Origin: Thermoplasmatales archaeon
GTDB taxonomy: Archaea; Thermoplasmatota; Thermoplasmata; Thermoplasmatales; Thermoplasmataceae
DNA length: 64,000 nt
Direction of reading: 5' to 3'
Assembly (NCBI GenBank): GCA_026127925.1
Contig: JAJSLM010000003.1
Location: 1 to 64,000, forward strand
Shown here piece after piece: positions 11,088 through 61,675 of this stretch; position 1 is the stretch's first letter, and every line of letters begins with the position of its first letter. The notes beneath the pieces were generated by a model. The model saw nothing but the letters and a program-made list of their open reading frames with translations. It ran no database searches and was not told the origin of the DNA. A program made the position numbers and the translations under genes.

Positions 11088-12974
11088 ATGAATCTTATAG
11101 ACCAAATCCTTACCGGCAAATCTGGTGAACGTTTATTTTTATTAGGCAACGAGGCGATTTCAAGGGGATTGCTTGAGGCTGGTGTCAAGGTCGCGACAAC
11201 TTATCCAGGTACACCATCCAGTGAAATTGGCGATGTACTTTCTCAGATTGCTAAACGGGCAGGTATGTACTTCGAATTTTCCGTAAACGAGAAAGTTGCG
11301 GTTGAGATGGCATTTTCTGGGAGCGTGTCTGGTCTCAGATCGTTTGTATTCATGAAACATGTAGGCCTGAACGTTGCTTCTGACAGTTTCATGAGTACGG
11401 TATACTCTGGAGCAAAAGCGGGTTTTGTAATAATGTCTGCTGATGATCCCTCAATGTTCTCATCCCAGAACGAACAGGATAACAGGGAATATTCAAAGCT
11501 TGCGCATATTCCAATGATTGAACCTTCAAATCCGCAGGAGGCTAAGGATTTCCTTAAGACTGCTTACGAGGTCTCTGAGAAATTCAATATACCTGTTCTT
11601 TTCCGGACAACAACCAGGGTGAGTCACCAGAGAGCAACAGTGGAATTGTCTAAAATACCAGACACTTCGCTGACCAAGGGTATGTTTGTTTATGATAAGG
11701 GAGACTATGTAGACCTTCCCTCAAATTCATATTTTCTCAAAGAGAAATTAGTTAAGAAGATGCAGGAAATTGAGAAATTTTCGAACACTTTAGATATAAA
11801 CAAACTAGTCGACAATGGAGCCAGCGATGTCGGCGTAATAACATCCGGTGAAGCCTACAATACACTCATGGATTCCCTTAATGAAAATGATCTGCGAGCA
11901 GATATATTCAAAATAGGCATGACAAACCCACTTCCATCTTCCACCTTGTTAAATTTTCTGAATACGCATGAAAGAATTATTGTTGTGGAGGAGCTAGACG
12001 ATTTCCTCGAGGAAAGGGTAAGGGCCCTTGCACAGGAAAATGGCCTATCCAAAAAGATTTATGGAAAAATGGACGGGTATTTTCCCTACAGCCATGAGTA
12101 CAACTCTGACATCGTTTCGCTGGGCCTTTCCAAGATTCTGGGTTTCGACTTTAAAATTCCACAACCCATGGTTGAAATTTCGGATCTTCCAAAGAGGCTT
12201 CCTGTCCTCTGTCCCGGTTGCCCTCACAGGGCCACGTTCTACGCGGTCAGGAGGGCTGTGAAAATGGCGAAACTTGACGGTGTTGTTTATTCATCGGATA
12301 TCGGATGTTATTCACTGGGCTCATATCCCCCTTTTGAAATGGCTGACACTATGCTGGCTATGGGGGCCTCTGTAGGCGTCGCAACGGGACTTGCGAAAGC
12401 AACAGATCAACGTATAATATCATTCATAGGTGATTCGACATTTTTCCATTCCGGTATACCTGCCATCATTGACGCAGTGAGGAACAAATCTGTAATGACG
12501 CTTATCGTACTGGACAACAGAACCACAGCAATGACAGGCCAGCAGCCAAATCCTGGAGTCCCAATCAACGGAATGGGTGATTCATCTTATGAAGAATCCA
12601 TAGAAAATATTGTAAGGGCACTTGGTGTTGTAAACGTTGTAACTGTCGACCCGTATGATTTGAAGAGCACTCTGCTCGCAGTTTCTTCGGCCTTGAGGTA
12701 TGAAGGCATATCCGTTGTGATTGCAAAGAGAGAATGCGCTATACTTAGAGACAATCGCATGAGGAAAGAGAGAACATGGAAGACGTTTGAGATCGATCAG
12801 GATAAGTGTACAAAATGCATGCGATGCGTGACAACTTTTTCATGTCCTGCAATTTACGTAGATAAGGGATCAGTAAAAATTAATCCAACACTCTGTGACG
12901 GATGTGGGGTCTGTGCAGAAGCTTATGTATGTCCATACAGGGCAATCAAGGAGGTCGTTCCAGTTGCAGACTAA
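11088..12974 (+). CDS. iorA: Indolepyruvate:ferredoxin oxidoreductase, alpha subunit
   Basis: A 628-residue thiamine-diphosphate enzyme subunit. With IorB it oxidatively decarboxylates aryl-pyruvates from Trp, Phe and Tyr transamination to aryl-acetyl-CoA, reducing ferredoxin. The N-terminal domain has TYPGTPSSEIGD; the ThDP motif is GDSTFFHSG (about 446-454). Two 4Fe-4S motifs end the protein: C-x2-C-x2-C-x5-C and C-x2-C-x2-C-x4-C (about 573-620). A TATA-like TTATTATACCC lies about 30 nt before the ATG. It overlaps iorB by 11 nt. Confidence 0.93.
   Translation: MNLIDQILTGKSGERLFLLGNEAISRGLLEAGVKVATTYPGTPSSEIGDVLSQIAKRAGMYFEFSVNEKVAVEMAFSGSVSGLRSFVFMKHVGLNVASDSFMSTVYSGAKAGFVIMSADDPSMFSSQNEQDNREYSKLAHIPMIEPSNPQEAKDFLKTAYEVSEKFNIPVLFRTTTRVSHQRATVELSKIPDTSLTKGMFVYDKGDYVDLPSNSYFLKEKLVKKMQEIEKFSNTLDINKLVDNGASDVGVITSGEAYNTLMDSLNENDLRADIFKIGMTNPLPSSTLLNFLNTHERIIVVEELDDFLEERVRALAQENGLSKKIYGKMDGYFPYSHEYNSDIVSLGLSKILGFDFKIPQPMVEISDLPKRLPVLCPGCPHRATFYAVRRAVKMAKLDGVVYSSDIGCYSLGSYPPFEMADTMLAMGASVGVATGLAKATDQRIISFIGDSTFFHSGIPAIIDAVRNKSVMTLIVLDNRTTAMTGQQPNPGVPINGMGDSSYEESIENIVRALGVVNVVTVDPYDLKSTLLAVSSALRYEGISVVIAKRECAILRDNRMRKERTWKTFEIDQDKCTKCMRCVTTFSCPAIYVDKGSVKINPTLCDGCGVCAEAYVCPYRAIKEVVPVAD
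12949..12955 (+). promoter_or_regulatory. Strong ribosome site deciding the iorB TTG start
   Basis: AGGAGGT inside the 3' end of iorA, eight nt before the TTG at 12964. Few other genes in the window have so complete an anti-16S match, which fits internal initiation within a polycistronic message. Confidence 0.75.
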
Positions 12975-50260: not shown

Positions 50261-51115
50261 TTGCGCGACATTAATTTCAATAAAGACATTGAAAATTTTC
50301 GTTCGTATATGATCGGTGAGCGAAAAAGTCCCTACACGGTTAAGGAATATTCCTTTCTTGTCTCTCTTTTCCTCAATTTCGTCAAAAAGAAGCCCGAGCA
50401 ATGTACATCTGCTGATATTGAACGTTTCAAGCACTTTGTCTCCGTGGAGAAGAAATATAAAAAAACCAGTCAGTATTTAGCTATAAAAGCCATAAGGTTT
50501 TTTTTTAAGTCGAGATCGGTTGTACCTCCTTTGAATCTTACGGCTCCGCAGAGACCCGTGCATATGCCTTCATACCTGAACGAGAGTGAAGCAAGGACAC
50601 TTATCACATTTTCAAAGAATGACCTTAAAGCAAATCTGATTATCAATATACTCGCATATACTGGTATTCGCGTCGGGGAACTTTGTAAATTAAACATACA
50701 GGATGTTGATGTTGAGGAAGGCGTGATACGGATACGGTCTGGCAAAGGGGATAAGGATAGAATTGTCATAATGCCCTCCGAATGTAAAGAGATCTTGGAT
50801 CAGTATCTCATGAAGAGATATGATGCAGTTGGCGATCCTGAGCCATTGATTCTCAGTCGGAGAGGAAGAAGGTATGATTCTTCTTCAATTGAGCGCCTTG
50901 TAAAGGGAACCGCAGAAAAAGCAGGTATAAGAAAAAAGGTCACACCTCACGTATTAAGGCACACCTTTGCCACATCGGTTCTCAGAAATGGGGGCGACAT
51001 ACGGTTTATACAGCAGATACTGGGGCATGCAAGCGTAGCCACAACCCAGATTTATACTCATGTTGACGACAGTATGCTAAGAGAAATGTACAATAAACAT
51101 AAACCGAAATATTAA
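50261..51115 (+). CDS. xerA: Tyrosine recombinase XerA
   Basis: A 284-residue tyrosine recombinase of the Xer type. The N-terminal SAM-like core-binding domain is followed by the catalytic set Arg (TGIRVGEL, about 138-145), Lys (GKGDKDR), His-x-x-Arg (HVLRHTFAT, about 229-237), His (LGHASVATTQIYTH) and the Tyr near 263. Archaeal XerA resolves chromosome dimers at dif with a single protein. A TTG start at 50261 is the first codon. No adjacent attachment site or integrated element was seen, so it is probably the housekeeping copy. Confidence 0.9.
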   Translation: MRDINFNKDIENFRSYMIGERKSPYTVKEYSFLVSLFLNFVKKKPEQCTSADIERFKHFVSVEKKYKKTSQYLAIKAIRFFFKSRSVVPPLNLTAPQRPVHMPSYLNESEARTLITFSKNDLKANLIINILAYTGIRVGELCKLNIQDVDVEEGVIRIRSGKGDKDRIVIMPSECKEILDQYLMKRYDAVGDPEPLILSRRGRRYDSSSIERLVKGTAEKAGIRKKVTPHVLRHTFATSVLRNGGDIRFIQQILGHASVATTQIYTHVDDSMLREMYNKHKPKY

Positions 51116-51272: not shown

Positions 51273-54200
51273 ATGTATACATATAGTGATAACGAAAGGA
51301 CGGAGAATTTATCAATCTGGGTCCAGAAGCATGTTGAATACATAGTAGTTGGAATTCTTATGGTATTCTACCTATTTGTGTCCAATTATTTTGCATGGGG
51401 CCCTACGTTTGTAACAGGTGGTGGGATCGCTGTTCTGCCCACATCAGGTGGAAGTGATCCATATTACAACTGGATGAACATTGTTTACTTTATTACATAT
51501 CATCACTGGATAGTATTCGATCCGAGGATGAACTACCCTATCGGAACCATAAACCCTAGGAATCCTTTCTTTCACATGCTTGTTATAGTTGTAGCTGAGA
51601 CCTTTGGCCCGATATTCCATGTCGGTGTAGAAACAGTGGCATTCTATGCATTTGAGGAACTTGACGCAGCCTTCGGCGCAATAATGATAATTCCTGTTTA
51701 CCTAATTGGAAAGGAAATTTTTGGCAGGCGTGGGGGCCTTATCGGGGCTTTCCTCTTCGCAATCATGTCAGTGAATCTCTCCGCTGGTGTTCTCTCTGAC
51801 GGAAGGATGCACACTCCAGAACTACTCTTTGCGTTATTCGTAATATATTTCTACATAAAGGCCATGAAGGCTACGAAACCAACTTATTTGCTTGATAAGA
51901 TAGGTAATGCTCGTTCATTAGGATCAAATCTAGTTAACTTTTATCGAAACAATCGAGTAGCTGTTGTTTATGTAATGCTCGCTGGAGCTTCTCTGGGTGG
52001 CTTAATGCTTTCATGGCAGGGCTATGCCTACATCGAAGCGATAGTATTGATATATGTCGCTGTTCAGATTCTTACCAACTTGATAGTTAAGAAACCAAGC
52101 GGTTATCTCACATTCTATACCATAATTTTCATAGCGATAGGTTTCGCAATGGGCGCCTATTATTACCAAATATTAGGTGAAGGACCACAATGGTACAACA
52201 CAGAGTTGCTTCTTGGCGTGATTATCATAGGCTTTGCTGTTCTAATGAATCTTATCAGCCGCAGGCCATGGATATTAATAATCCCCGCACTTATCCTCGC
52301 TGCCGGACTTGCCATTGTTGGTCTTGCGCACTTTTACCCGTCACTTCTGGTGAAAGTATTAGGTGGTTATGGTTACTTTATAAAAAGCAGGGTATATACA
52401 ACCATAGCTGAGGCTTCAGGGGTAACAATATCAACCCTTGGTTCCTACATAAGTGGTTATGGTGGGGCGGAGTTTATCTTAGGTCTATCTGGTTTAGGTT
52501 ATGTGATCTATAAATTCCTAAAGACACGTTCAGAACTCATGCTCTTCTTTGCAATTTTTTCCATAGTTTCAATTTTCATGAGTTTTGAATCTTTCAAGTT
52601 TAATATAGATGTCGCCCCTGTGTATGCAATATTAACTGCTGGACTTCTCGTTTATTTCATTGGAATAGTGAGGTTGCAGGATCTAAAGAAAAGACGCGTT
52701 AGTTCAGAGATGTCGCCAGCTAAAAGTATAAGAGGGAATATAAAGGGCTTGCAGGTTGCCTTTGTTGTGCTTGTCGTTATTGCTCTTGTTGTTCCTTCTG
52801 GATTATCTACTGTGTCATCTGGTATTCCCACAAATAACGCTGGTCATGTAAATAGTGAACTTGCATCTGCGCTGCCTTCATTCTTTGGGTTGAACGCAAG
52901 CACGATTGCATTTGCTGGAGCTTCCGGTCTATCGATAGTAAATAAGACAGATCCACAGGTTCAATCATTCTTATGGCTTGCCGGTCAGAACAAGAACGTG
53001 CCATTTGATAAACGACCTGCGTACCTTTCCTGGTGGGACTACGGATTTCAGGAAATGTATCAGGGGCAACATCCCACCGTGGCGGACGATTTCCAGCAGG
53101 GGTATGAAGTCGCTGGGCAGGTACTTCTAGCGCAGAATCAGAGCCAGATATTGTCTTTATATATTGCGCGTGTCATACAGGGAAATTATGTAAACAACAG
53201 TAATAGTTTTAGCAGCAATGTCAAAAACACGCTCATTCAGTACCTTGGAAACGCAGAGTACAAAAATGTACTTGGAGTATCACAAAATCCAGGTAGTTAC
53301 ACATCAATAGTATTGTCTGATCCATCACTGTACGGTAATTTTATTCCCCAGATTTCGAGCGCCAACGTTTATTTTGCCTATCTTAATGGTCAATTATCAT
53401 CAAAATATTCGCTTCAATCGCTGAATGATCTATATCAACAGCTTATCTCTGAGACCGGTTATAACATAGAGTATAATCAGATAACAGTCGGATCGTCTGG
53501 GCTCTTTCCGATCTCTGCTAGTGATCCAGGTATATTTTATGCACCTGCTTTTCTAACCGATTATCAGTCATATGACTACCAGGGTGAAGTAGTTCCATAT
53601 CCATTTTATAACATTATAGCCACCACTTCTAACGGAACGTTTCCACTGAATCAAACTCCGAAGGACGCCACAATTACTGGAACTAATATTTCCTATACCC
53701 AGAGTTTTTACAACTCAAGCATATATCGATTTACCATAGGTTATCCACCTTCGGTGGTCGGTTTAACAAGCGGAATACCTGGAGTCAGCACTGGTAATTC
53801 GAGTTATCCGGTTATGCCTGCGTGGAATATGAGTAACTTCGAAATTGTCTATTCTTCCAGTTATTACAATCCGTACAAAGATTACCAGAATCATCTTTCC
53901 GCTGGAAAATACATACCACTTGAACAAGCGTACAAATTGTACAAGGAAAATAATGGAACAGTTGTCTTATTTCCTCCGGCTGTTGACCTCGTTAGTGTCA
54001 ATAATGAATGGGATCCGATAGTTTCATATTACCCTGGAGCCATTGTTCAGGGTAAAGTTGTCTCTGGAGACGGGAGACCTGCACCAGGCGTATATGTTAC
54101 GCTCTTCGACCAATATGGTATTCCGCACGAAGTCGTGAAGACAAATGCATCTGGAGAGTACAAGTTGAATGCTGTTCCTGGAAACGATACGCTTCTATTT

Positions 54201-57200
54201 TCCACCGGGAAATACAACACTTTGGAGCTTTCCGGGAGCTCAACGATAGCTTCTTACAGTCTGAATGTGAGCAATTCACAGGCTGAACGGACAAACAGCT
54301 CTATAAACGTTACAACCGGACTCCCTGGCTACTATATTATCAAGAATCTTACCTTACCCGAAGATTCAGTACGCGGTACTATTGGCCTAACTTACTCTTC
54401 ATCTAACTCAAATTCGGCTGCCATACCCTTTAACAGCGGGACACTAATATTCAAGAACAGCACATACAACAACAGTTTTAACATAACCGTTTCTAATGGG
54501 TATTTTGAGAAATTGAATGTACCCCCTGAAACCTACAACATTTCTCTCGTTTCTGCAGGAGATTACTACCATAATATTGGAAACGTGAGCGTGGTGGCAA
54601 ATTCTACTACAACCAAAAATATTACCGTGATTCTTGATCGTATATTAGCCAAAATCTCTATTGGTTCAATTGGGATCTCCGGTATTCCTCTAAATATCAC
54701 AACGACAAACGGCTTAATTGTAAAGCAGGTAGTTTCAGATTCCAATGGCACAGCTACTGCCTGGGTCACCCCAGGTAATTATTCTGTTTTCGCTGGGAAC
54801 TCGTCGATAATGTCAATGGTAGGGCAAGTGTCATTTTCGACATGGGGTAAAAACTATACCTCAGATTATTCTCTTTCTCCAGCAGTGCGTGTTGTTATTA
54901 TTCCTGGTCATGCCATTTCAGGAAATGCTAACGTAGAGCTTCTCAAGAACGGAAAAATGTCCGCTAACGTAACTGCTGAGAAGAGCAGCAATGGATCCTT
55001 CGTGGCAAATGTACCGATTGGTGTATACACCATATATGCTACGAATCACGCTGCGAATGGTAATTATTCATACCTGAAGACTATTGATATTAGAGCGAAT
55101 TCCTCCTTCAATTTGGCAGGGAAATGGCAGAAGTCAAGCTTTGTAAATCTTTCCTCGCATAGTCCAGGGGTATCCACAGCCTATGTTGGTGATTACGAGA
55201 TAATGAATTCTTCAGCTATGATCTCGTTTCCTTTCACATCCACTATTCCGCTCACTGTTCAGATACCAATAGGAATGTACAGTTTTTCAGTACTTGCTTC
55301 TACTTCGAATGGAACGGTGTACGGTAATGTTATTAACTCCGTCGGGCCATTCGTGAAAATAAGTATAACTGCTGTAAAATCTAATTACGTCAATGTAACA
55401 GCTATAAACTCAATGTCGTCTAGAAACTATACGGCCACTCCTTCTGGTCTTGTTGTTCTTTATTCTTCTTCTGGTTTACCTGTATCATTTGGAAATCTTT
55501 CCTCTGGCGCGTTCTCATTGTTGTATCCCGGTATTTCCCTAAACGGCATGTACGTCCGTTATCTTAGTTCCAGCTTCCATTCGCAAGAGATCAACGTGAA
55601 AAGCCGCTCAGTTTCATTCGGAGCAAGCCCTATTGTAACTTCTGGTTCTTTGCATTTCATCGATCCAGAAGTGAGTCCAAACGGTACCAAGGTTGCATTA
55701 TATAATTCCGGGGCTAACTTCTCTGCAACGATCCAAAATAATAATATTACATTCGATCTTATTAATTCTGGAATTCCAGTAGGCGTATACTATATTGCAG
55801 TTGAAGGAATAAAGTCCGGTTTCTTGGCAGATAACCCTGTTATCGGAGTCAATGAAGGAAGATCGCCTCTCTCCAACCATACATTATCGAATTTCGGGTC
55901 CGTTAAAGCAAACGGATCGACGACCACGAACATCTATTATCTTAATGGCACAGAAGTGAGTTCGCCTGAACAGCTGATCTTCGGGCAATATTACGTTTAT
56001 GCATATTCCTCGACTGAAGGTGTAAACATCTCTCTGGTCAATGTTAATGGTTTCATATCATTCTCCCCAAAATATAATCCCTATGCACAGTTAAATCTAA
56101 GTAACACTCTCGGAAATAATCAGGGAACGTATCTTCTCGTTGGTAACGGATTTGGCATATCTCTTTCTTCTGGATCTACTCCTGTACCTTTAGGGTATTA
56201 TTCAGTAGTGTATCATGGAAGAATGGCAAATTCATCTGGATCCTATTCGCTAGCTGGCACAATCCAAGTTTATGTGACTAAGAACACATTTGTATCTGTT
56301 CCGGTCTTAGCTAAGCCAATGCTCACAACAGTAAAAGGTGTATTGTCATTCAACGGAGTAGCATCTAGCTTAAGCACTATAGTGTTTTATTCGGCAAATT
56401 ACACCAAGGTGGCAAATACCAATATTGCAGGTGAGTATTCTGTTTCGTTGGCTACTTCAAACTACACGGTGTACGTTCAGGACAACAGTCTAGATTCTGC
56501 ATTTTTACAGAACCTAGCGATATCTCCTTTTACCAGCAGTCTAAGTTATAACATTAGTATGCAACCTGCTTACAAGGTCAAGGTTTATGTGACCTTGGGG
56601 ACATCCACAATTAATAATAATGTAACACTATCAACCAATCTGGGCAGTAACTATATGTTCAATAGTTCACGTGTATCGCTTCTGCTCCCGTATGGGACAT
56701 ACACTTTTGAAACATCCTTCTCCAGTTCCATGGTTGCTGCTAACAATTCGTCCATATCTGTCGCTTACAGTGCGTCGTCAACAACTCTTATTAATTCACC
56801 AAGTTCTGTTTTCTTGAACATGCAAATAATACCAAAGACGGACTTTAAGTTAACACCAGAGCAACATAAGCCTAATATCACACCGAAGGTACCATTTAGT
56901 TATAAATTTTCGATTCAAAATACAGGCAATGTTGCAGAGTTCATTAAACTGAGCTCAGGGGCGACAGGCTGGACAGCTACTTTTAACACATCTACAATGA
57001 ATCTCGAACCCGGCCAAATTGCAAACGTGACTGGTAATTTCAGCGATGTGGGAAATGTCGCTTATGGCAACAATTCCGTACCCATCAGCGTAACTTATTC
57101 TAACTCAACCAAATCATATACCCTCCCTGTATTCGTTAATGAATTCCTATCCTATTCCGTTCATAAGTCCCCTGAATCTATGGTTGGGGGAAAATTAGAC

Positions 57201-57635
57201 ATTCCCGTGGTTCTGAATAATACTGGGAATGCTAAAATTACTTTAAATTTCAGGATCATTGATCCAACATACATTACGAACAGATCATGGACTCCATTAT
57301 TGGAGATCAACAATGTAACATCAAATTCCACAACGGTTAATTATGATTCCAGTACGGTTCTAAATGTTCTGTTGAAGCCTTCGAATAATAGTTCTCCCAT
57401 CTATAATTTTAATTTCAATATTGAAATTTACAATAAAACCGTCGGGTATCAGAATCAGACCTTGAGTGTGGTACATCTGGGGTCGATCCAGGTGGGTTCA
57501 CATGTCACCGGGAATAAGATCATATCTAATTATACTGGAAATCCCTACGAGGCACTTTACACAGGGCTAATTGTTATAGCTGTTGCAGTTGTTGCCGGGT
57601 TCGTTGTTACAATCTTAAGAGGTAGGAAGAGATGA
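51273..57635 (+). CDS. aglB: Giant oligosaccharyltransferase AglB with external Ig-like repeats
   Basis: A 2120-residue STT3/AglB. Residues about 25-510 hold about 13 membrane helices. The first catalytic Asp is D62 in GSDPYYN, the TIXE motif is TIAE at 377-380 and WWDYG is at 587-591, so the enzyme should transfer lipid-linked glycans to Asn. Normal AglB ends near 800-1000. Here, from about residue 920, a carboxypeptidase-regulatory-like segment (GKVVSGDGRPAPGVYVTLFD) begins. It is followed by a long run of beta-rich repeats and two NEW3/CARDB-like domains (about 1880-2080: NTGNVAEFIKL and NTGNAKITLNF), one last membrane helix and a basic tail. Sequons are very frequent. TATA TTTTTATACA at about 51228. 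Confidence 0.93.
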   Translation: MYTYSDNERTENLSIWVQKHVEYIVVGILMVFYLFVSNYFAWGPTFVTGGGIAVLPTSGGSDPYYNWMNIVYFITYHHWIVFDPRMNYPIGTINPRNPFFHMLVIVVAETFGPIFHVGVETVAFYAFEELDAAFGAIMIIPVYLIGKEIFGRRGGLIGAFLFAIMSVNLSAGVLSDGRMHTPELLFALFVIYFYIKAMKATKPTYLLDKIGNARSLGSNLVNFYRNNRVAVVYVMLAGASLGGLMLSWQGYAYIEAIVLIYVAVQILTNLIVKKPSGYLTFYTIIFIAIGFAMGAYYYQILGEGPQWYNTELLLGVIIIGFAVLMNLISRRPWILIIPALILAAGLAIVGLAHFYPSLLVKVLGGYGYFIKSRVYTTIAEASGVTISTLGSYISGYGGAEFILGLSGLGYVIYKFLKTRSELMLFFAIFSIVSIFMSFESFKFNIDVAPVYAILTAGLLVYFIGIVRLQDLKKRRVSSEMSPAKSIRGNIKGLQVAFVVLVVIALVVPSGLSTVSSGIPTNNAGHVNSELASALPSFFGLNASTIAFAGASGLSIVNKTDPQVQSFLWLAGQNKNVPFDKRPAYLSWWDYGFQEMYQGQHPTVADDFQQGYEVAGQVLLAQNQSQILSLYIARVIQGNYVNNSNSFSSNVKNTLIQYLGNAEYKNVLGVSQNPGSYTSIVLSDPSLYGNFIPQISSANVYFAYLNGQLSSKYSLQSLNDLYQQLISETGYNIEYNQITVGSSGLFPISASDPGIFYAPAFLTDYQSYDYQGEVVPYPFYNIIATTSNGTFPLNQTPKDATITGTNISYTQSFYNSSIYRFTIGYPPSVVGLTSGIPGVSTGNSSYPVMPAWNMSNFEIVYSSSYYNPYKDYQNHLSAGKYIPLEQAYKLYKENNGTVVLFPPAVDLVSVNNEWDPIVSYYPGAIVQGKVVSGDGRPAPGVYVTLFDQYGIPHEVVKTNASGEYKLNAVPGNDTLLFSTGKYNTLELSGSSTIASYSLNVSNSQAERTNSSINVTTGLPGYYIIKNLTLPEDSVRGTIGLTYSSSNSNSAAIPFNSGTLIFKNSTYNNSFNITVSNGYFEKLNVPPETYNISLVSAGDYYHNIGNVSVVANSTTTKNITVILDRILAKISIGSIGISGIPLNITTTNGLIVKQVVSDSNGTATAWVTPGNYSVFAGNSSIMSMVGQVSFSTWGKNYTSDYSLSPAVRVVIIPGHAISGNANVELLKNGKMSANVTAEKSSNGSFVANVPIGVYTIYATNHAANGNYSYLKTIDIRANSSFNLAGKWQKSSFVNLSSHSPGVSTAYVGDYEIMNSSAMISFPFTSTIPLTVQIPIGMYSFSVLASTSNGTVYGNVINSVGPFVKISITAVKSNYVNVTAINSMSSRNYTATPSGLVVLYSSSGLPVSFGNLSSGAFSLLYPGISLNGMYVRYLSSSFHSQEINVKSRSVSFGASPIVTSGSLHFIDPEVSPNGTKVALYNSGANFSATIQNNNITFDLINSGIPVGVYYIAVEGIKSGFLADNPVIGVNEGRSPLSNHTLSNFGSVKANGSTTTNIYYLNGTEVSSPEQLIFGQYYVYAYSSTEGVNISLVNVNGFISFSPKYNPYAQLNLSNTLGNNQGTYLLVGNGFGISLSSGSTPVPLGYYSVVYHGRMANSSGSYSLAGTIQVYVTKNTFVSVPVLAKPMLTTVKGVLSFNGVASSLSTIVFYSANYTKVANTNIAGEYSVSLATSNYTVYVQDNSLDSAFLQNLAISPFTSSLSYNISMQPAYKVKVYVTLGTSTINNNVTLSTNLGSNYMFNSSRVSLLLPYGTYTFETSFSSSMVAANNSSISVAYSASSTTLINSPSSVFLNMQIIPKTDFKLTPEQHKPNITPKVPFSYKFSIQNTGNVAEFIKLSSGATGWTATFNTSTMNLEPGQIANVTGNFSDVGNVAYGNNSVPISVTYSNSTKSYTLPVFVNEFLSYSVHKSPESMVGGKLDIPVVLNNTGNAKITLNFRIIDPTYITNRSWTPLLEINNVTSNSTTVNYDSSTVLNVLLKPSNNSSPIYNFNFNIEIYNKTVGYQNQTLSVVHLGSIQVGSHVTGNKIISNYTGNPYEALYTGLIVIAVAVVAGFVVTILRGRKR

Positions 57636-58411
57636 AGAAAGTTATTTTGGCACTCATTGTTGTAATGATACTCCTGGGATCATCTCTTCTGGTTGTGTCC
57701 AATGCATCTGGTTACGCTCCTCCGCTTGCCTCCACTCTCACGCTTCCATCATATATCGGTGAAGGGCAGAACTTTACGCTTTACGTGAACGACACAACCG
57801 GATTCTCCAATTATTCAGTAACTGTTTACATAGCAGGCCAGAATATGACTGGGGCAAGCCCATCATTTTCCTATCACAACACTTCAAAGTCTCCGAATTT
57901 CGCTATTAACTTTAAGGCTCCATTTTATGCCCAAACTTTGCACATGCAGGTGTTCTCAACAGGAAATTATAACGGTAAAACAGTTAGTTCTCCGAAGTAT
58001 AATACGAGCATAAAGGTCATTGCGCCGATTACATTTGTTGTATCTGTCAGTAATCCTGGAACCGGTTATGTAAAGAATCTGACAATAGATTTTTACATGG
58101 ATAGTACTCAAGTGCATTCGGAAGTCATTTCATCACTAGGTCCCGGAAGCTCGGTTAACGTGACATACAACTATACAAATCCCGCAATTTCAAACGGAGT
58201 CCATACACTAGGTGTGTCTACTTCGAATCCTTTGATTGAAATTAATGGTAAGACCGGGCTCGTGACCATAAAGTTCTATTACGGATCGCCTCCAAACTAT
58301 ACCTGGATATATTATGTAGCAGCCGTCGTTGCGGTATTCATGGCTCTCCTCGCGTATTCCGCCGGCAGAAGAAATAAACCAAAGGTTTCGAAACCCAAGT
58401 GGAAAACGTAA
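57632..58411 (+). CDS. Secreted CARDB-like protein anchored by C-terminal helix
   Basis: A 259-residue protein coupled to aglB by an ATGA overlap. It has a signal peptide (KKVILALIVVMILLGSSLLVVSNASG, residues 2-27), then two beta-sandwich-like parts rich in N-x-S/T sequons, the second with the CARDB-type FVVSVSNPGTGYVKNLTIDFYMD. A membrane helix (about 223-243) and a Lys-rich tail follow. It resembles the terminal part of AglB's extension. It could be an accessory subunit of the oligosaccharyltransferase or a substrate; the coupling favours an accessory role. Confidence 0.75.
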   Translation: MKKVILALIVVMILLGSSLLVVSNASGYAPPLASTLTLPSYIGEGQNFTLYVNDTTGFSNYSVTVYIAGQNMTGASPSFSYHNTSKSPNFAINFKAPFYAQTLHMQVFSTGNYNGKTVSSPKYNTSIKVIAPITFVVSVSNPGTGYVKNLTIDFYMDSTQVHSEVISSLGPGSSVNVTYNYTNPAISNGVHTLGVSTSNPLIEINGKTGLVTIKFYYGSPPNYTWIYYVAAVVAVFMALLAYSAGRRNKPKVSKPKWKT

Positions 58412-58691: not shown

Positions 58692-59354
58692 TCAGTTTTG
58701 AGACGCCATAATGGCTCTTCTTAATGTGATGAATTCACGATCATAAGCATCTTTTCTGTGTATCCCATTTTGAATTTCTGGAGAAATTCTATAGTTTTCT
58801 TCAACGCCTGCTATTCGCGCTGCAGATAATGCATTGTCATGTAATTTATGAGGAAAGCTTGTGTATTTTTCGTCCACTACCTTCACATGTATATCCTTTT
58901 CAGACAGCAATCGCCTTATGTAGTCTCTGTTAGGGATATCCCCATTGCCCATCTTGACTTCTAAAAATTCATATTTGTACTCGTAGATAATTCCTGTAAT
59001 GTCTTCCAGCAGTTTTTCTGGGCTTGAACATTCGTAGGCTTCCGTTAGTATTCCGTCCGCAAGTATCGCTATTCCCGGATACGGTCCTGGATCAATTCCT
59101 ATGAATAATTCACGAAAGGAATTCTTCAGGAAGAGAGCTGGCAATGCTTTTCTAAGTCCTTCTCTCGGGGTATCTGCTTTAAACTGGATTTCAGAGCATT
59201 CTTGATCCTTGGACGAACTTAGGACGGCTTTTACATCGGGGGGAACGTTTTGTAGGTCTATAAGGCTCGCAAAAGGGAGATTCCATCTCCTCAACAACTG
59301 GATTGAATCGTGGTAAAATTTGAAATCATGGGTAAAAACCCCAACCCTAGGCAT
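58692..59354 (-). CDS. RuvC-like (RNase H fold) protein, uncharacterised
   Basis: A 220-residue protein with a central RNase-H-like/RuvC pattern: ELFIGIDPGPYPGIAIL (first Asp, about 92), LEVKMGNGDIPNR (Glu on a strand, about 136), then KVVDEKYTS (Asp/Glu) and LHDNALSAARIAG (Asp, about 175). The first ~80 residues are a separate alpha/beta part (VGVFTHDFKFYHDSIQLLRRW). This order fits RuvC/Hjc-like resolvases or the DUF460-type nucleases, but I cannot name the family. A short basic C-terminal tail follows. Function as a nuclease is inferred from residues only. Confidence 0.7.
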   Translation of the reverse strand: MPRVGVFTHDFKFYHDSIQLLRRWNLPFASLIDLQNVPPDVKAVLSSSKDQECSEIQFKADTPREGLRKALPALFLKNSFRELFIGIDPGPYPGIAILADGILTEAYECSSPEKLLEDITGIIYEYKYEFLEVKMGNGDIPNRDYIRRLLSEKDIHVKVVDEKYTSFPHKLHDNALSAARIAGVEENYRISPEIQNGIHRKDAYDREFITLRRAIMASQN

Positions 59355-59653
59355 TCAACATATAATTCTTCATTGGATTAAAGGTTTTGTGGAAGTTTCT
59401 TTAAAATTTTGAGGGGTAAACCGGATAACTGGATCAGAGATCGTATCGCAAATGTGAGCTTAGATATGTTATTGCATGAACATTTTCACATTGTTAAACT
59501 TGAGTTCATACTAAATTTAATTTTGCTCTTACTCTGTTTCTGAAATTAGTGCCTTTTACTTTCACTCTTTAGGTGAATTCTCTTGGAACTATCCTAGTAC
59601 CAACGCGCATTCGGTCAACTTATTGCCAAATAAGAACAGATTCGTGATGTTAA

Positions 59654-59701
59654 CTCGTGAATAACGGCTCACTTAGTGAATCATTCATCTATCTCGTGAA
59701 T
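59654..59701. repeat. Three short direct repeats, about 20-bp spacing
   Basis: CTCGTGAAT at 59654-59662 and 59693-59701 are identical, with TTAGTGAAT at 59673-59681 in between; starts are 19 and 20 bp apart. A related TTCGTGAT is at 59641. About two helical turns separate the copies, the pattern of a protein-binding array. Confidence 0.45.
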
Positions 59702-59741
59702 GGTCCATTGGCTCGAACCCGGCAGGATAGGACAAGAACAT

Positions 59742-59771
59742 TACCCCCGAAAATGGATTGGGGTATTTTTT
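59742..59771 (+). terminator. Hairpin plus T-run, terminator-like
   Basis: TACCCC at 59742-59747 pairs with GGGGTA at 59760-59765 around a 12-nt loop, immediately followed by six T. The T-run follows the hairpin only on the plus strand, where no known gene ends nearby, so it may close an unannotated transcript. Confidence 0.4.
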
Positions 59772-59880
59772 AACATTCATGGACTGATGTTTTGTTAAAG
59801 AGTAATTCCCATTCGTCCCGTAATATTCAATCAGTGTACTTCGACTCGCTACTTTGTGTAATTGAACCAAATGTGGAAAT

Positions 59881-61227
59881 TCAAGTAGTTTCCCGATGCC
59901 CTAGCTGACCGCCTATGATATTGTTAGCGATTTCTATAAACTGTTTCTCTTTTCCTCGTGGTATAATCGCCCCGGCTGCAATATCGTGTCCCCCACCACT
60001 GCCGCCTACCTGGGAAGCTGATTCTTTCATTACTGTGGAGAGGTTTAACCCTCGACTTAAAAGCGGCCTAGCAGCCCTGGAACTTATTTTAGTGTCGCTA
60101 TCGCCAACATTAATGCCAACGAGCGGCTTGTCTTGTTTTAGGACGTAAAGGGTTAGTATGCCGCTAATTGCACCTGTCATCTCCTGCTCGGGAGCATAAA
60201 AATACCTTACATTTTTTTCCTCAAAAATTTCTTTAAAGACACGATAGGTATATTCAATGAGTTTTGACTTGTAGATTTTCCAATTATTTATCATAGCATC
60301 CTGTAAGCCTTTTTCGCCGAGGAAGTAACCAACTGGGACTCCGTTTTCACCAAGCTTCGAATTTCCATCTATGATTGTGGAGAGTTCTTTTGACGAGAAA
60401 CCGAGATCCCGGAAGAAGAAGATGTCACTTTCAAGATACTTTATGCTCTCCGACGAAACACCCTGTTGGAGCAGTCGAAGAGCAAGGAATTCAAACAATT
60501 TCTTTGAGTCTGAATCTGTTATTGAATTCAAGGCGATGCTCGGGTCCAAGCCAATGCCTTCTAGCGCTGTTTTTACGTTTTCCGGTTTTCCCGAGAGGTT
60601 GTAAATGAAAGGATCGATAGAGAAAGTAAGTGCATCCCCTATATTTTCGCCCTCAAGGTTCAATGGGTGTTTTTCCTCGAGAGATTTTCCATAGTGTTCA
60701 ACAATAGTGGCATTCAGACCCCTAAAACCACCTATGTCCTGTTTATCAGCTATTAGTCCGGCAATCATGAATGGCAATAGATCGGAATTTTTCTCGCTGA
60801 TGGCGAGGGCCATGAGAAAAGACATCGTTGCGCCACATGCTTCCCTGGTTCCGTCTACGCCATAATCACGTGCGTTGATATTCAGACCCTTGAACTCGCT
60901 TTTCTTGTAGAAATGATGATCTAGTATGACGATGTTATCAAACTCAGGAATAAATTGCGCCTGATCTGATCCCGCATCCGCTATTACGGTAAAAATGTCA
61001 GAGGATTCCTGAACTTTTCTTCTGAAGCCATCTGGGTCAAGGGATTTTATGAAGCTAAGATCAAATTCAATCCCGCTTCTCTTCAGTACATTGCACAGAA
61101 TAATGCCAGATGATGCTCCGTCACCGTCATTATGGACTAAAACTCTTATTCTTTCATTCTCTAGTATTTTTTTTGAACCTTCTTTTAAAACGCTATAGAA
61201 TTCGGAGCTAATGATGTCTTTTAGCAT
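59881..61227 (-). CDS. Archaeal RecJ-like DHH phosphoesterase
   Basis: A 448-residue DHH-superfamily protein. Metal site motifs: VHNDGDGASSG (residues about 31-41), VIADAGSDQ (about 80-88), ILDHHF (about 101-106) and the DHHA1 glycine-rich end VGGSGGGHDIAAGA. Archaeal members include the GAN nuclease and Cdc45-like RecJ proteins tied to the replisome or repair. The three Asp motifs are intact, so catalysis is likely. Ten nt after rps15 in a probable operon. Confidence 0.88.
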   Translation of the reverse strand: MLKDIISSEFYSVLKEGSKKILENERIRVLVHNDGDGASSGIILCNVLKRSGIEFDLSFIKSLDPDGFRRKVQESSDIFTVIADAGSDQAQFIPEFDNIVILDHHFYKKSEFKGLNINARDYGVDGTREACGATMSFLMALAISEKNSDLLPFMIAGLIADKQDIGGFRGLNATIVEHYGKSLEEKHPLNLEGENIGDALTFSIDPFIYNLSGKPENVKTALEGIGLDPSIALNSITDSDSKKLFEFLALRLLQQGVSSESIKYLESDIFFFRDLGFSSKELSTIIDGNSKLGENGVPVGYFLGEKGLQDAMINNWKIYKSKLIEYTYRVFKEIFEEKNVRYFYAPEQEMTGAISGILTLYVLKQDKPLVGINVGDSDTKISSRAARPLLSRGLNLSTVMKESASQVGGSGGGHDIAAGAIIPRGKEKQFIEIANNIIGGQLGHRETT

Positions 61228-61237
61228 TAAAGATACT

Positions 61238-61675
61238 TCAAAGCACTCTGTTTAGATTCCACTCTTCAGGAAGGTAGCCCTCTCTTTTGTAATATTTAAC
61301 AAGTCTGAGGATTTTTGCCATGATAAGTCCTTGACCACGTATATTGCTCTGATCCTTTCTATTCACTTCAGTATGCGCCTTGACATTTTTGTATCTCTTG
61401 ATGAGACTCATAAGATCCTCAGGAACTGGATCTGAAAGATTGTTTTCCTTAAATATCGTGTTCAATTTGGCTCCCAGTTCTGTTCTAGTTCCTGGTACCG
61501 CGTACTGATCACGTAATCTTACGCCTATAACGGAATTCGTAAGTCCACTTTTCTTTAAATCCACTGCAGTCTTGATTATCTCGTCATTTGTAAGCTGGCT
61601 TATTTTACCCTCTTCTGGTGTGTGTAACCTTCTTGACTTCGATTTTCCCCTTTTTCGTGTGTGCATTCTTGACAT
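61238..61675 (-). CDS. rps15: 30S ribosomal protein S15 (S13e type)
   Basis: A 145-residue archaeal S15. The basic N-terminus MSRMHTRKRGKSKSRR, the central SVIGVRLRDQYAVPG and the end RLVKYYKREGYLP-EW are the family's well known motifs. It binds 16S rRNA helices 20-22 in the platform. The gene is directly followed by the DHH protein, a common archaeal arrangement. Confidence 0.97.
   Translation of the reverse strand: MSRMHTRKRGKSKSRRLHTPEEGKISQLTNDEIIKTAVDLKKSGLTNSVIGVRLRDQYAVPGTRTELGAKLNTIFKENNLSDPVPEDLMSLIKRYKNVKAHTEVNRKDQSNIRGQGLIMAKILRLVKYYKREGYLPEEWNLNRVL

What the first reader, a model, noticed from the sequence alone, without database searches (positions are those of the whole stretch)
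51273..57635. Giant AglB with an ~1200-residue external beta-repeat extension
Sequence: catalytic core motifs are intact (D62, TIAE 377-380, WWDYG 587-591). The chain then continues to 2120 residues with carboxypeptidase-regulatory-like, Ig-like and NEW3/CARDB-like domains, ending in a membrane helix and a basic tail. Known AglB/STT3 proteins are about 600-1000 residues. Inference: a wall-less, acid-living cell may use the extension as a glycosylated cell-surface scaffold, or to hold substrates near the active site. The many sequons suggest that the enzyme glycosylates itself.
Basis: partly seen in the sequence, partly recalled or inferred. Interest (0 to 1): 0.72.

Follow-up and report, generated by a model that had tools for sequence, protein, structure and literature searches.

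The report
Giant sugar-transfer enzyme with coupled partner
The cell's only enzyme for attaching sugar chains to exported proteins carries a thousand-residue outer arm that is anchored back in the membrane and is made together with a small membrane protein; this pair is conserved across a whole class of archaea, in acid-loving species and methanogens alike, so archaeal sugar-transfer enzymes may not always work as single proteins.

Summary
Window 51273-57635 is one intact 2120-codon ORF: a complete AglB/STT3 oligosaccharyltransferase, then ~1,070 residues of beta-sandwich domains, a C-terminal membrane helix and a basic tail. It is not an assembly artefact: about 47 homologues from other species are single ORFs of 2,050-2,200 aa, including two closed genomes. 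The acid or wall-less explanation fails. The giant form runs through the class, methanogens included, and recurs in other classes, where some AglBs reach ~3,200 aa. Sequons in the arm are twice the chance number in all homologues, so glycosylation of the arm is likely but unproven. The main addition: the next gene (57632-58411; signal peptide, CARDB domain, membrane helix, basic tail) overlaps the aglB stop by 4 nt. A homologue occurs in 199 of 201 genomes of the class. It lies directly downstream of aglB wherever contigs allow a check, and is the only neighbour still beside aglB outside the order. An Acidiplasma-type lineage deleted ~700 residues of mid-arm but kept both arm ends and the partner. 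Best reading: a two-chain oligosaccharyltransferase whose anchored arm and partner form an extracytoplasmic platform, analogous to eukaryotic accessory subunits but not shown homologous. Complex formation and function are inferred.

The parts
51273..57635 (+). giant aglB, 2120 codons plus stop; the only OST gene in the genome
51273..54032 (+). catalytic core, residues 1-920 (multi-spanning GT-C domain plus C-terminal globular domain)
   Evidence: PF02516, TIGR04154 partial match, AF2 model with Foldseek hit to AfAglB 7e9s E 1.8e-21
51456..51458 (+). D62, first acidic catalytic motif (GGSD)
   Evidence: invariant in 30 homologues
52401..52412 (+). TIAE motif, residues 377-380
   Evidence: T377 and E380 invariant
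53031..53045 (+). WWDYG motif, residues 587-591
   Evidence: invariant
54045..54227 (+). carboxypeptidase-regulatory-like (prealbumin-like) domain, residues 925-985
   Evidence: PF13620 E 2.5e-12; in 29 of 29 members scanned
54045..54797 (+). proximal beta module, residues ~925-1175, kept even in some short AglBs and in Acidiplasma-type forms
   Evidence: A2 profile 1-250 matches short AglBs of f44 and f51; profile 1-279 kept in L036/L037
54333..56927 (+). divergent beta-sandwich array, residues ~1021-1885
   Evidence: AF2 model pLDDT 83; Foldseek finds generic alpha-2-macroglobulin/integrin Ig arrays
56928..57527 (+). terminal NEW3/CARDB-like beta domains, residues ~1886-2085
   Evidence: profile match to partner CARDB protein, hhalign E 1.5e-6; kept in Acidiplasma-type forms
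57561..57632 (+). C-terminal membrane helix (~2097-2115) and basic tail
   Evidence: hydropathy, AF2 helix, tail 45% pairwise identity vs 26% for the arm
57632..57635 (+). 4-nt overlap (ATGA) of aglB stop with partner start
   Evidence: exactly 4-nt overlap in 45 of 66 loci, start codon chosen by rule
57632..58411 (+). partner gene, 259 aa: signal peptide, beta region with CARDB (residues 120-198), membrane helix (~226-244), basic tail (..PKWKT)
   Evidence: PF07705 E 9.6e-9, hydropathy, alignment A4; 199 of 201 class genomes

Best explanation
The window encodes the cell's only oligosaccharyltransferase as a two-gene unit. AglB has an ordinary catalytic core, a proximal beta module, and a ~1,000-residue beta-sandwich arm whose far end returns to the membrane through a single helix with a basic tail. 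The next gene, translationally coupled to aglB, makes a small single-span protein with an exported CARDB/Ig-like part and a short basic cytosolic tail. I propose that this partner is a dedicated subunit that docks on the membrane-anchored end of the arm, so that arm and partner build an extracytoplasmic platform beside the active site, and probably beside the Sec channel, which keeps emerging unfolded acceptor chains within reach; the arm itself is heavily N-glycosylated by the enzyme. Shown here: ORF integrity, domain order, membrane-anchor prediction, sequon enrichment, class-wide conservation of the arm and of the coupled partner. Inferred: physical complex, translocon proximity, acceptor holding, occupancy of sequons.
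For: Intact OST core. Arm collinear and constant in length (1048 +/- 23 aa in 48 homologues) despite 26% pairwise identity, with a better conserved C-terminal anchor (45%). Partner in 199/201 genomes of the class; same-strand and adjacent in 90 of 98 genomes checked, 4 exceptions being contig breaks and 4 explained by partial core matches or over-long ORF starts. Partner is the only window neighbour retained beside aglB outside the order: partner profile hits in 14 of 15 such loci (the 15th is cut by a contig end), the other nine neighbours in 0 of 15. 4-nt stop/start overlap in 45/66. Sequon excess in arm (z 5.9) and in partner (9 vs 4.2, z 3.0). Natural deletion: L036/L037/L040 (1433-1454 aa) lack most of A2 profile ~280-1018 but keep the proximal module, terminal domain, membrane helix and partner. 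Short AglBs lack the C-terminal helix, and no partner is seen beside them in the limited flanks held.
Against: No interaction or activity was measured. The other giant-AglB groups outside the class differ: in f33/f41 (3,120-3,320 aa) and f25/f34 no partner is seen next to aglB in the loci read, so the arm does not strictly need this partner. CARDB domains are common in archaeal exported proteins. Operon conservation shows co-expression, not contact. The mid-arm tolerates a ~700-residue deletion, so a precise reach is not essential.
Confidence: 0.55

Rival explanations
1. The arm is mainly a glycosylated surface scaffold or shield (pseudo-S-layer) fused to the enzyme, and the partner is another surface protein expressed with it.
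For: All-beta exported array, strong sequon enrichment, generic surface-protein folds.
Against: It is fused to a single-copy enzyme, probably too scarce for a coat (inference); its length is constant although its sequence diverges; the class includes methanogens and is not limited to wall-less acidophiles; Acidiplasma-type forms dropped most of the array yet kept anchor and partner.
Confidence: 0.2
2. Arm and partner form a translocon-docking module functionally like the eukaryotic NOMO (prealbumin-domain array with one C-terminal helix) and TRAP alpha/beta (Ig-like domain, helix, basic ribosome-contacting tail), coupling N-glycosylation to protein export.
For: Top PDB profile hit of the arm is NOMO2 (E 9.6e-10); same architecture class; NOMO prealbumin domains and the TRAP C-tail are described in PMC11186639. 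Partner tail motif PKW[K/R] in 29 of 38 members.
Against: The NOMO score is a sum of weak domain matches (best domain i-Evalues 0.0018 and 0.025); only single members of 29 hit NOMO Pfam models, with E above 0.005, while CarboxypepD_reg hits all; no NOMO among the 50 best Foldseek hits; no TRAP chain in the PDB search with the partner profile.
Confidence: 0.2
3. The arm is a slowly drifting, largely neutral accretion of repeat domains, and gene adjacency is only inherited operon structure.
For: Low sequence conservation, internal domain duplications, deletion in an Acidiplasma-type lineage.
Against: Near-constant length, conserved anchor, sequon enrichment in every homologue, and retention of the partner but no other neighbour across the class.
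Confidence: 0.12
4. Assembly or frame-merging artefact joining AglB to a separate surface protein.
For: None in the window; aglB is split by frameshifts only in a few assemblies such as L038, L051, L062.
Against: About 47 other-species homologues are single ORFs of the same length, two in closed genomes; conserved across the junction; even base composition along the ORF.
Confidence: 0.01

Closest known systems
Archaeal oligosaccharyltransferase AglB (A. fulgidus AglB-L, PDB 3waj/5gmy/7e9s)
   Same: Catalytic fold and motifs; Foldseek E 1.8e-21, profile E 2e-25.
   Different: Characterised AglBs are 754-1054 aa (PMC5131992) with only small peripheral units (PMC3703281); here a ~1,070-residue anchored arm and a coupled second gene.
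TIGR04154 archaeo_STT3 (archaeosortase A-associated)
   Same: Matches residues 24-514, E 4.7e-51.
   Different: 174 bits against a cut-off of 450, so not a member of that subfamily.
NOMO, subunit of the BOS complex of the eukaryotic multipass translocon
   Same: Array of prealbumin-like domains followed by one C-terminal membrane helix; best PDB profile hit.
   Different: Not fused to an OST; sequence similarity is at the level of the common carboxypeptidase-regulatory domain clan.
TRAP alpha/beta and ribophorin I (accessory subunits at the eukaryotic translocon/OST)
   Same: Partner has the same plan: signal peptide, beta-sandwich, one helix, basic cytosolic tail.
   Different: No detectable sequence relation; partner is a CARDB-domain protein.
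CARDB domain proteins (PF07705)
   Same: Partner hits PF07705 in 33 of 38 members.
   Different: This subfamily is single-copy in the window's genome and tied to aglB.

Membership tests
AglB/STT3 oligosaccharyltransferase | Multi-spanning GT-C membrane domain of STT3 type | tested here: met
   PF02516 above gathering score; Foldseek to AfAglB E 1.8e-21
AglB/STT3 oligosaccharyltransferase | Acidic catalytic residues and TIxE-type motif | tested here: met
   D62, T377, E380 invariant
AglB/STT3 oligosaccharyltransferase | WWDYG sequon-binding motif | tested here: met
   W587-G591 invariant in 30 homologues
AglB/STT3 oligosaccharyltransferase | DK/MI/DM motif of the Ser/Thr pocket | tested here: inconclusive
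   Most homologues carry a D in 'DHxLFP'; the window protein has TVGSSGLFP instead; motif not assignable without a structure
AglB/STT3 oligosaccharyltransferase | Glycan transfer activity | not testable with these tools
   needs enzymology
TIGR04154 archaeo_STT3 subfamily | Score at or above 450 bits | tested here: not met
   174.1 bits
NOMO (BOS complex) | Prealbumin-like domain array with a single C-terminal membrane helix | tested here: met
   AF2 model and domain scan; an analogy of plan only
NOMO (BOS complex) | Family-specific sequence or fold similarity | tested here: not met
   per-domain i-Evalues 0.0018/0.025; only single members of 29 weakly hit NOMO models; no NOMO among top Foldseek hits
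TRAP alpha/beta or ribophorin I/OST48 (for the partner) | Sequence similarity to solved subunits | tested here: not met
   Partner profile finds only CARDB domains significantly in the PDB
CARDB domain proteins (for the partner) | PF07705 above gathering score | tested here: met
   35.8 vs 22.7 bits

The most novel reading that the evidence does not exclude
In the class Thermoplasmata the oligosaccharyltransferase is an obligate two-subunit complex with a membrane-anchored arm, a prokaryotic multi-subunit OST that evolved accessory machinery independently of eukaryotes, or from a shared archaeal translocon toolkit, to couple N-glycosylation to secretion.
Probability: 0.45. Interest if true: 0.78.

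Novelty: new variant of a known kind. Interest (0 to 1): 0.6.

Why it matters
Characterised archaeal OSTs are treated as single proteins. A giant anchored form with a translationally coupled partner, kept across a class that includes methanogens and extreme acidophiles, predicts the first dedicated OST accessory subunit in these archaea and gives a defined pair of genes to test. It also offers a natural deletion series (1.43-kaa Acidiplasma-type, 2.1-kaa, ~3.2-kaa forms) for asking what large extracytoplasmic OST parts do. In the open-access papers searched, AglB is listed for Thermoplasmatales (PMC3750248, PMC5155288, PMC10354927), but no passage found describes the size, arm or partner.

Tried and rejected
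Frame-merging artefact: rejected. Acidophile-specific or wall-less-specific trait: rejected by distribution. NOMO homology: the first E-value (9.6e-10) looked striking, but the alignments show weak matches summed over repeats, and Pfam gives generic CarboxypepD_reg, so it is kept only as an analogy. Foldseek of the arm: only generic Ig/macroglobulin arrays, TM-scores below 0.2, uninformative for function. Stand-alone arm gene in short-AglB lineages (a split version): none found in 8 genomes. Mirror-tree test of partner against AglB segments: positive but no segment stands out (partial correlations 0.36-0.50, 25 loci), so not used. Partner sequence search in PDB: only CARDB NMR/crystal domains are significant. 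The window's XerA, ADH and other upstream genes: not conserved near aglB.
Full report
OBSERVATION. The ORF at 51273-57635 is real and intact: 2120 codons from ATG, no internal stop. It is single-copy in the genome. The catalytic half is a normal AglB: PF02516 above its gathering score, partial match to TIGR04154 (E 4.7e-51 but far under that subfamily's cut-off), and an AF2 model whose best PDB match is A. fulgidus AglB (7e9s, E 1.8e-21). D62, T377, E380 and WWDYG 587-591 are invariant in 30 homologues. The DK/MI-type pocket motif cannot be assigned: most homologues have 'DHxLFP', the window protein has an insertion and no Asp there.

NOT AN ARTEFACT. A scan of one genome per species returned 62 loci. 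Counting the window's own gene, 48 hold a single complete ORF of 2,053-2,201 aa that aligns end to end, including the complete genomes of Ferroplasma acidarmanus Fer1 (L057) and ASS_A1 (L021). Identity is ~50% through residue 1020, ~25% from 1021 to 2100, and 45% again in the C-terminal helix and tail. So the carboxypeptidase-regulatory-like domain at 925-985 is part of the conserved enzyme and the divergent arm starts near 1020. Base composition is even along the ORF.

THE ARM. AF2 on residues 925-2120 with 45 homologues gives an all-beta array (pLDDT 83, pTM 0.50) ending in a helix 1167-1195 of the model, i.e. residues 2091-2119. Foldseek finds only generic arrays (alpha-2-macroglobulin, integrin, low TM-scores). 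Pfam across 29 members: CarboxypepD_reg in all, SdrD_B in 11, bMG3 in 9, two NOMO models in one member each. The arm length is nearly constant, 1048 +/- 23 aa, with 26% pairwise identity. N-x-S/T sequons number 54 against 27.4 +/- 4.5 expected from shuffles; in 48 homologues the mean z is 6.7 and the forward:reverse ratio is 2561:1423; the membrane domain shows no excess (2 vs 1.9). This supports glycosylation of the arm but does not show it.

DISTRIBUTION. A profile of residues 1-1020 found AglB in 382 of 391 genomes of the phylum. The class of the window has frames of 2,000-2,400 aa in nearly all families, with the arm profile matching along its length. The mcrA-bearing family f6 has more diverged AglBs of 1,860-1,917 aa, and f7 and f8, whose sampled members also carry mcrA, have 2,100-2,300 aa. 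Other classes: f24, f25, f34 2,370-2,440 aa; f33 and f41 3,120-3,320 aa, with an extra N-terminal membrane block in the member read in full (L112), and often rhodopsin genes, so probably Poseidoniales (my inference). One clade of families (f21, f22, f31, f32, f44 and others) has AglBs of 1,010-1,430 aa; the five complete ones checked lack the C-terminal helix. A tree of the core (quick method, midpoint root for drawing) puts giant forms on several sides of this short clade, so the giant form is old; whether the short clade is ancestral or a loss depends on the root, which I could not place. This removes the acid or wall-less explanation.

A NATURAL DELETION. An Acidiplasma-type lineage (L036, L037, L040; 1,433-1,454 aa) lacks most of profile positions ~280-1018 of the arm but keeps the proximal module, the terminal domain, the C-terminal helix and the downstream gene. 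The ends of the arm matter more than its middle.

THE PARTNER GENE. The next gene (57632-58411, 259 aa) starts inside the aglB stop (ATGA). It has a signal peptide, a CARDB domain (PF07705, 35.8 bits against 22.7), a membrane helix and a basic tail. Of 66 loci with a partner, the overlap is exactly 4 nt in 45 and the gap is within -4 to +62 in all but two, both with frameshifted aglB (start codons chosen by rule). A profile of the partner hits 199 of 201 genomes of the class. From the coordinate tables, 90 of 98 genomes have it adjacent on the same strand; 4 exceptions are contig breaks and 4 are partial core matches or over-long ORF starts. Outside the order, partner profile hits lie beside aglB in 14 of 15 loci read (the 15th is cut by a contig end), while the other nine window neighbours tested lie beside it in 0 of 15. 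It also lies after aglB in f24 (L111) and, by coordinates, in f38, but not in f25, f34 or f33 loci read. In 29 of 38 aligned members the cytosolic tail carries PKW[K/R].

MECHANISM. Shown: a bona fide OST core, an arm predicted to be tethered at both ends, enrichment of sequons, a coupled single-span partner with class-wide linkage. Inferred: that the partner binds the anchored end of the arm, that both form an extracytoplasmic platform beside the active site and the protein-export channel, and that this helps to catch acceptor chains. A pure surface-scaffold role is less likely because the arm is fused to a single-copy enzyme and its middle can be lost.

COMPARISON. In plan the arm resembles NOMO of the eukaryotic multipass translocon, and the partner resembles TRAP alpha/beta. 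NOMO is the best PDB profile hit of the arm (E 9.6e-10), but the alignments are weak summed repeats and family-specific tests fail; the partner has no detectable relation to TRAP or ribophorin chains. I therefore file AglB as an AglB/STT3 family member with a new architecture and the partner as a CARDB protein, and call the eukaryotic likeness an analogy. OST1 and OST3/6 homologues are reported only from TACK and Asgard archaea and eukaryotes, TRAP from Asgard archaea and eukaryotes (PMC11417166). I found no open-access description of this arm or partner; subscription papers were not searchable.

LIMITS.

Noticed in passing
L112, L113 (family f33), L117-L127 (f41): AglB frames of 3,120-3,320 aa; in L112, read in full, a ~360-residue extra N-terminal membrane block precedes the core and a C-terminal helix follows prealbumin/NEW3-like repeats; probably Poseidoniales. 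No CARDB partner next door in L112/L113; a different, larger gene follows aglB.
   Followed up: partly
L036, L037, L040: Acidiplasma-type AglBs lack about 700 residues of mid-arm but keep the anchor and partner gene.
   Followed up: yes
L038:8980-15325: E-plasma aglB is split into two overlapping frames (1233 and 916 aa) near 12574-12681: sequencing error or a natural split.
   Followed up: partly
window 53457-53540: The 'DHxLFP' stretch of the presumed Ser/Thr pocket is replaced by TVGSSGLFP in the window protein and altered in a few relatives.
   Followed up: partly
window 50261-51115: XerA-like tyrosine recombinase directly upstream of aglB; not conserved there in relatives.
   Followed up: partly
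window 58692-61675: Oppositely oriented block (220-aa protein, RecJ-like/DHH protein, 145-aa protein) stays downstream of the aglB pair across Thermoplasmatales but not in other families of the class.
   Followed up: partly
L139, L141, L143 (family f6, mcrA-positive): Methanogen AglB cores sit on a very long branch (1.96) yet still have frames of 1,860-1,917 aa and, by coordinates, the partner gene next door.
   Followed up: partly
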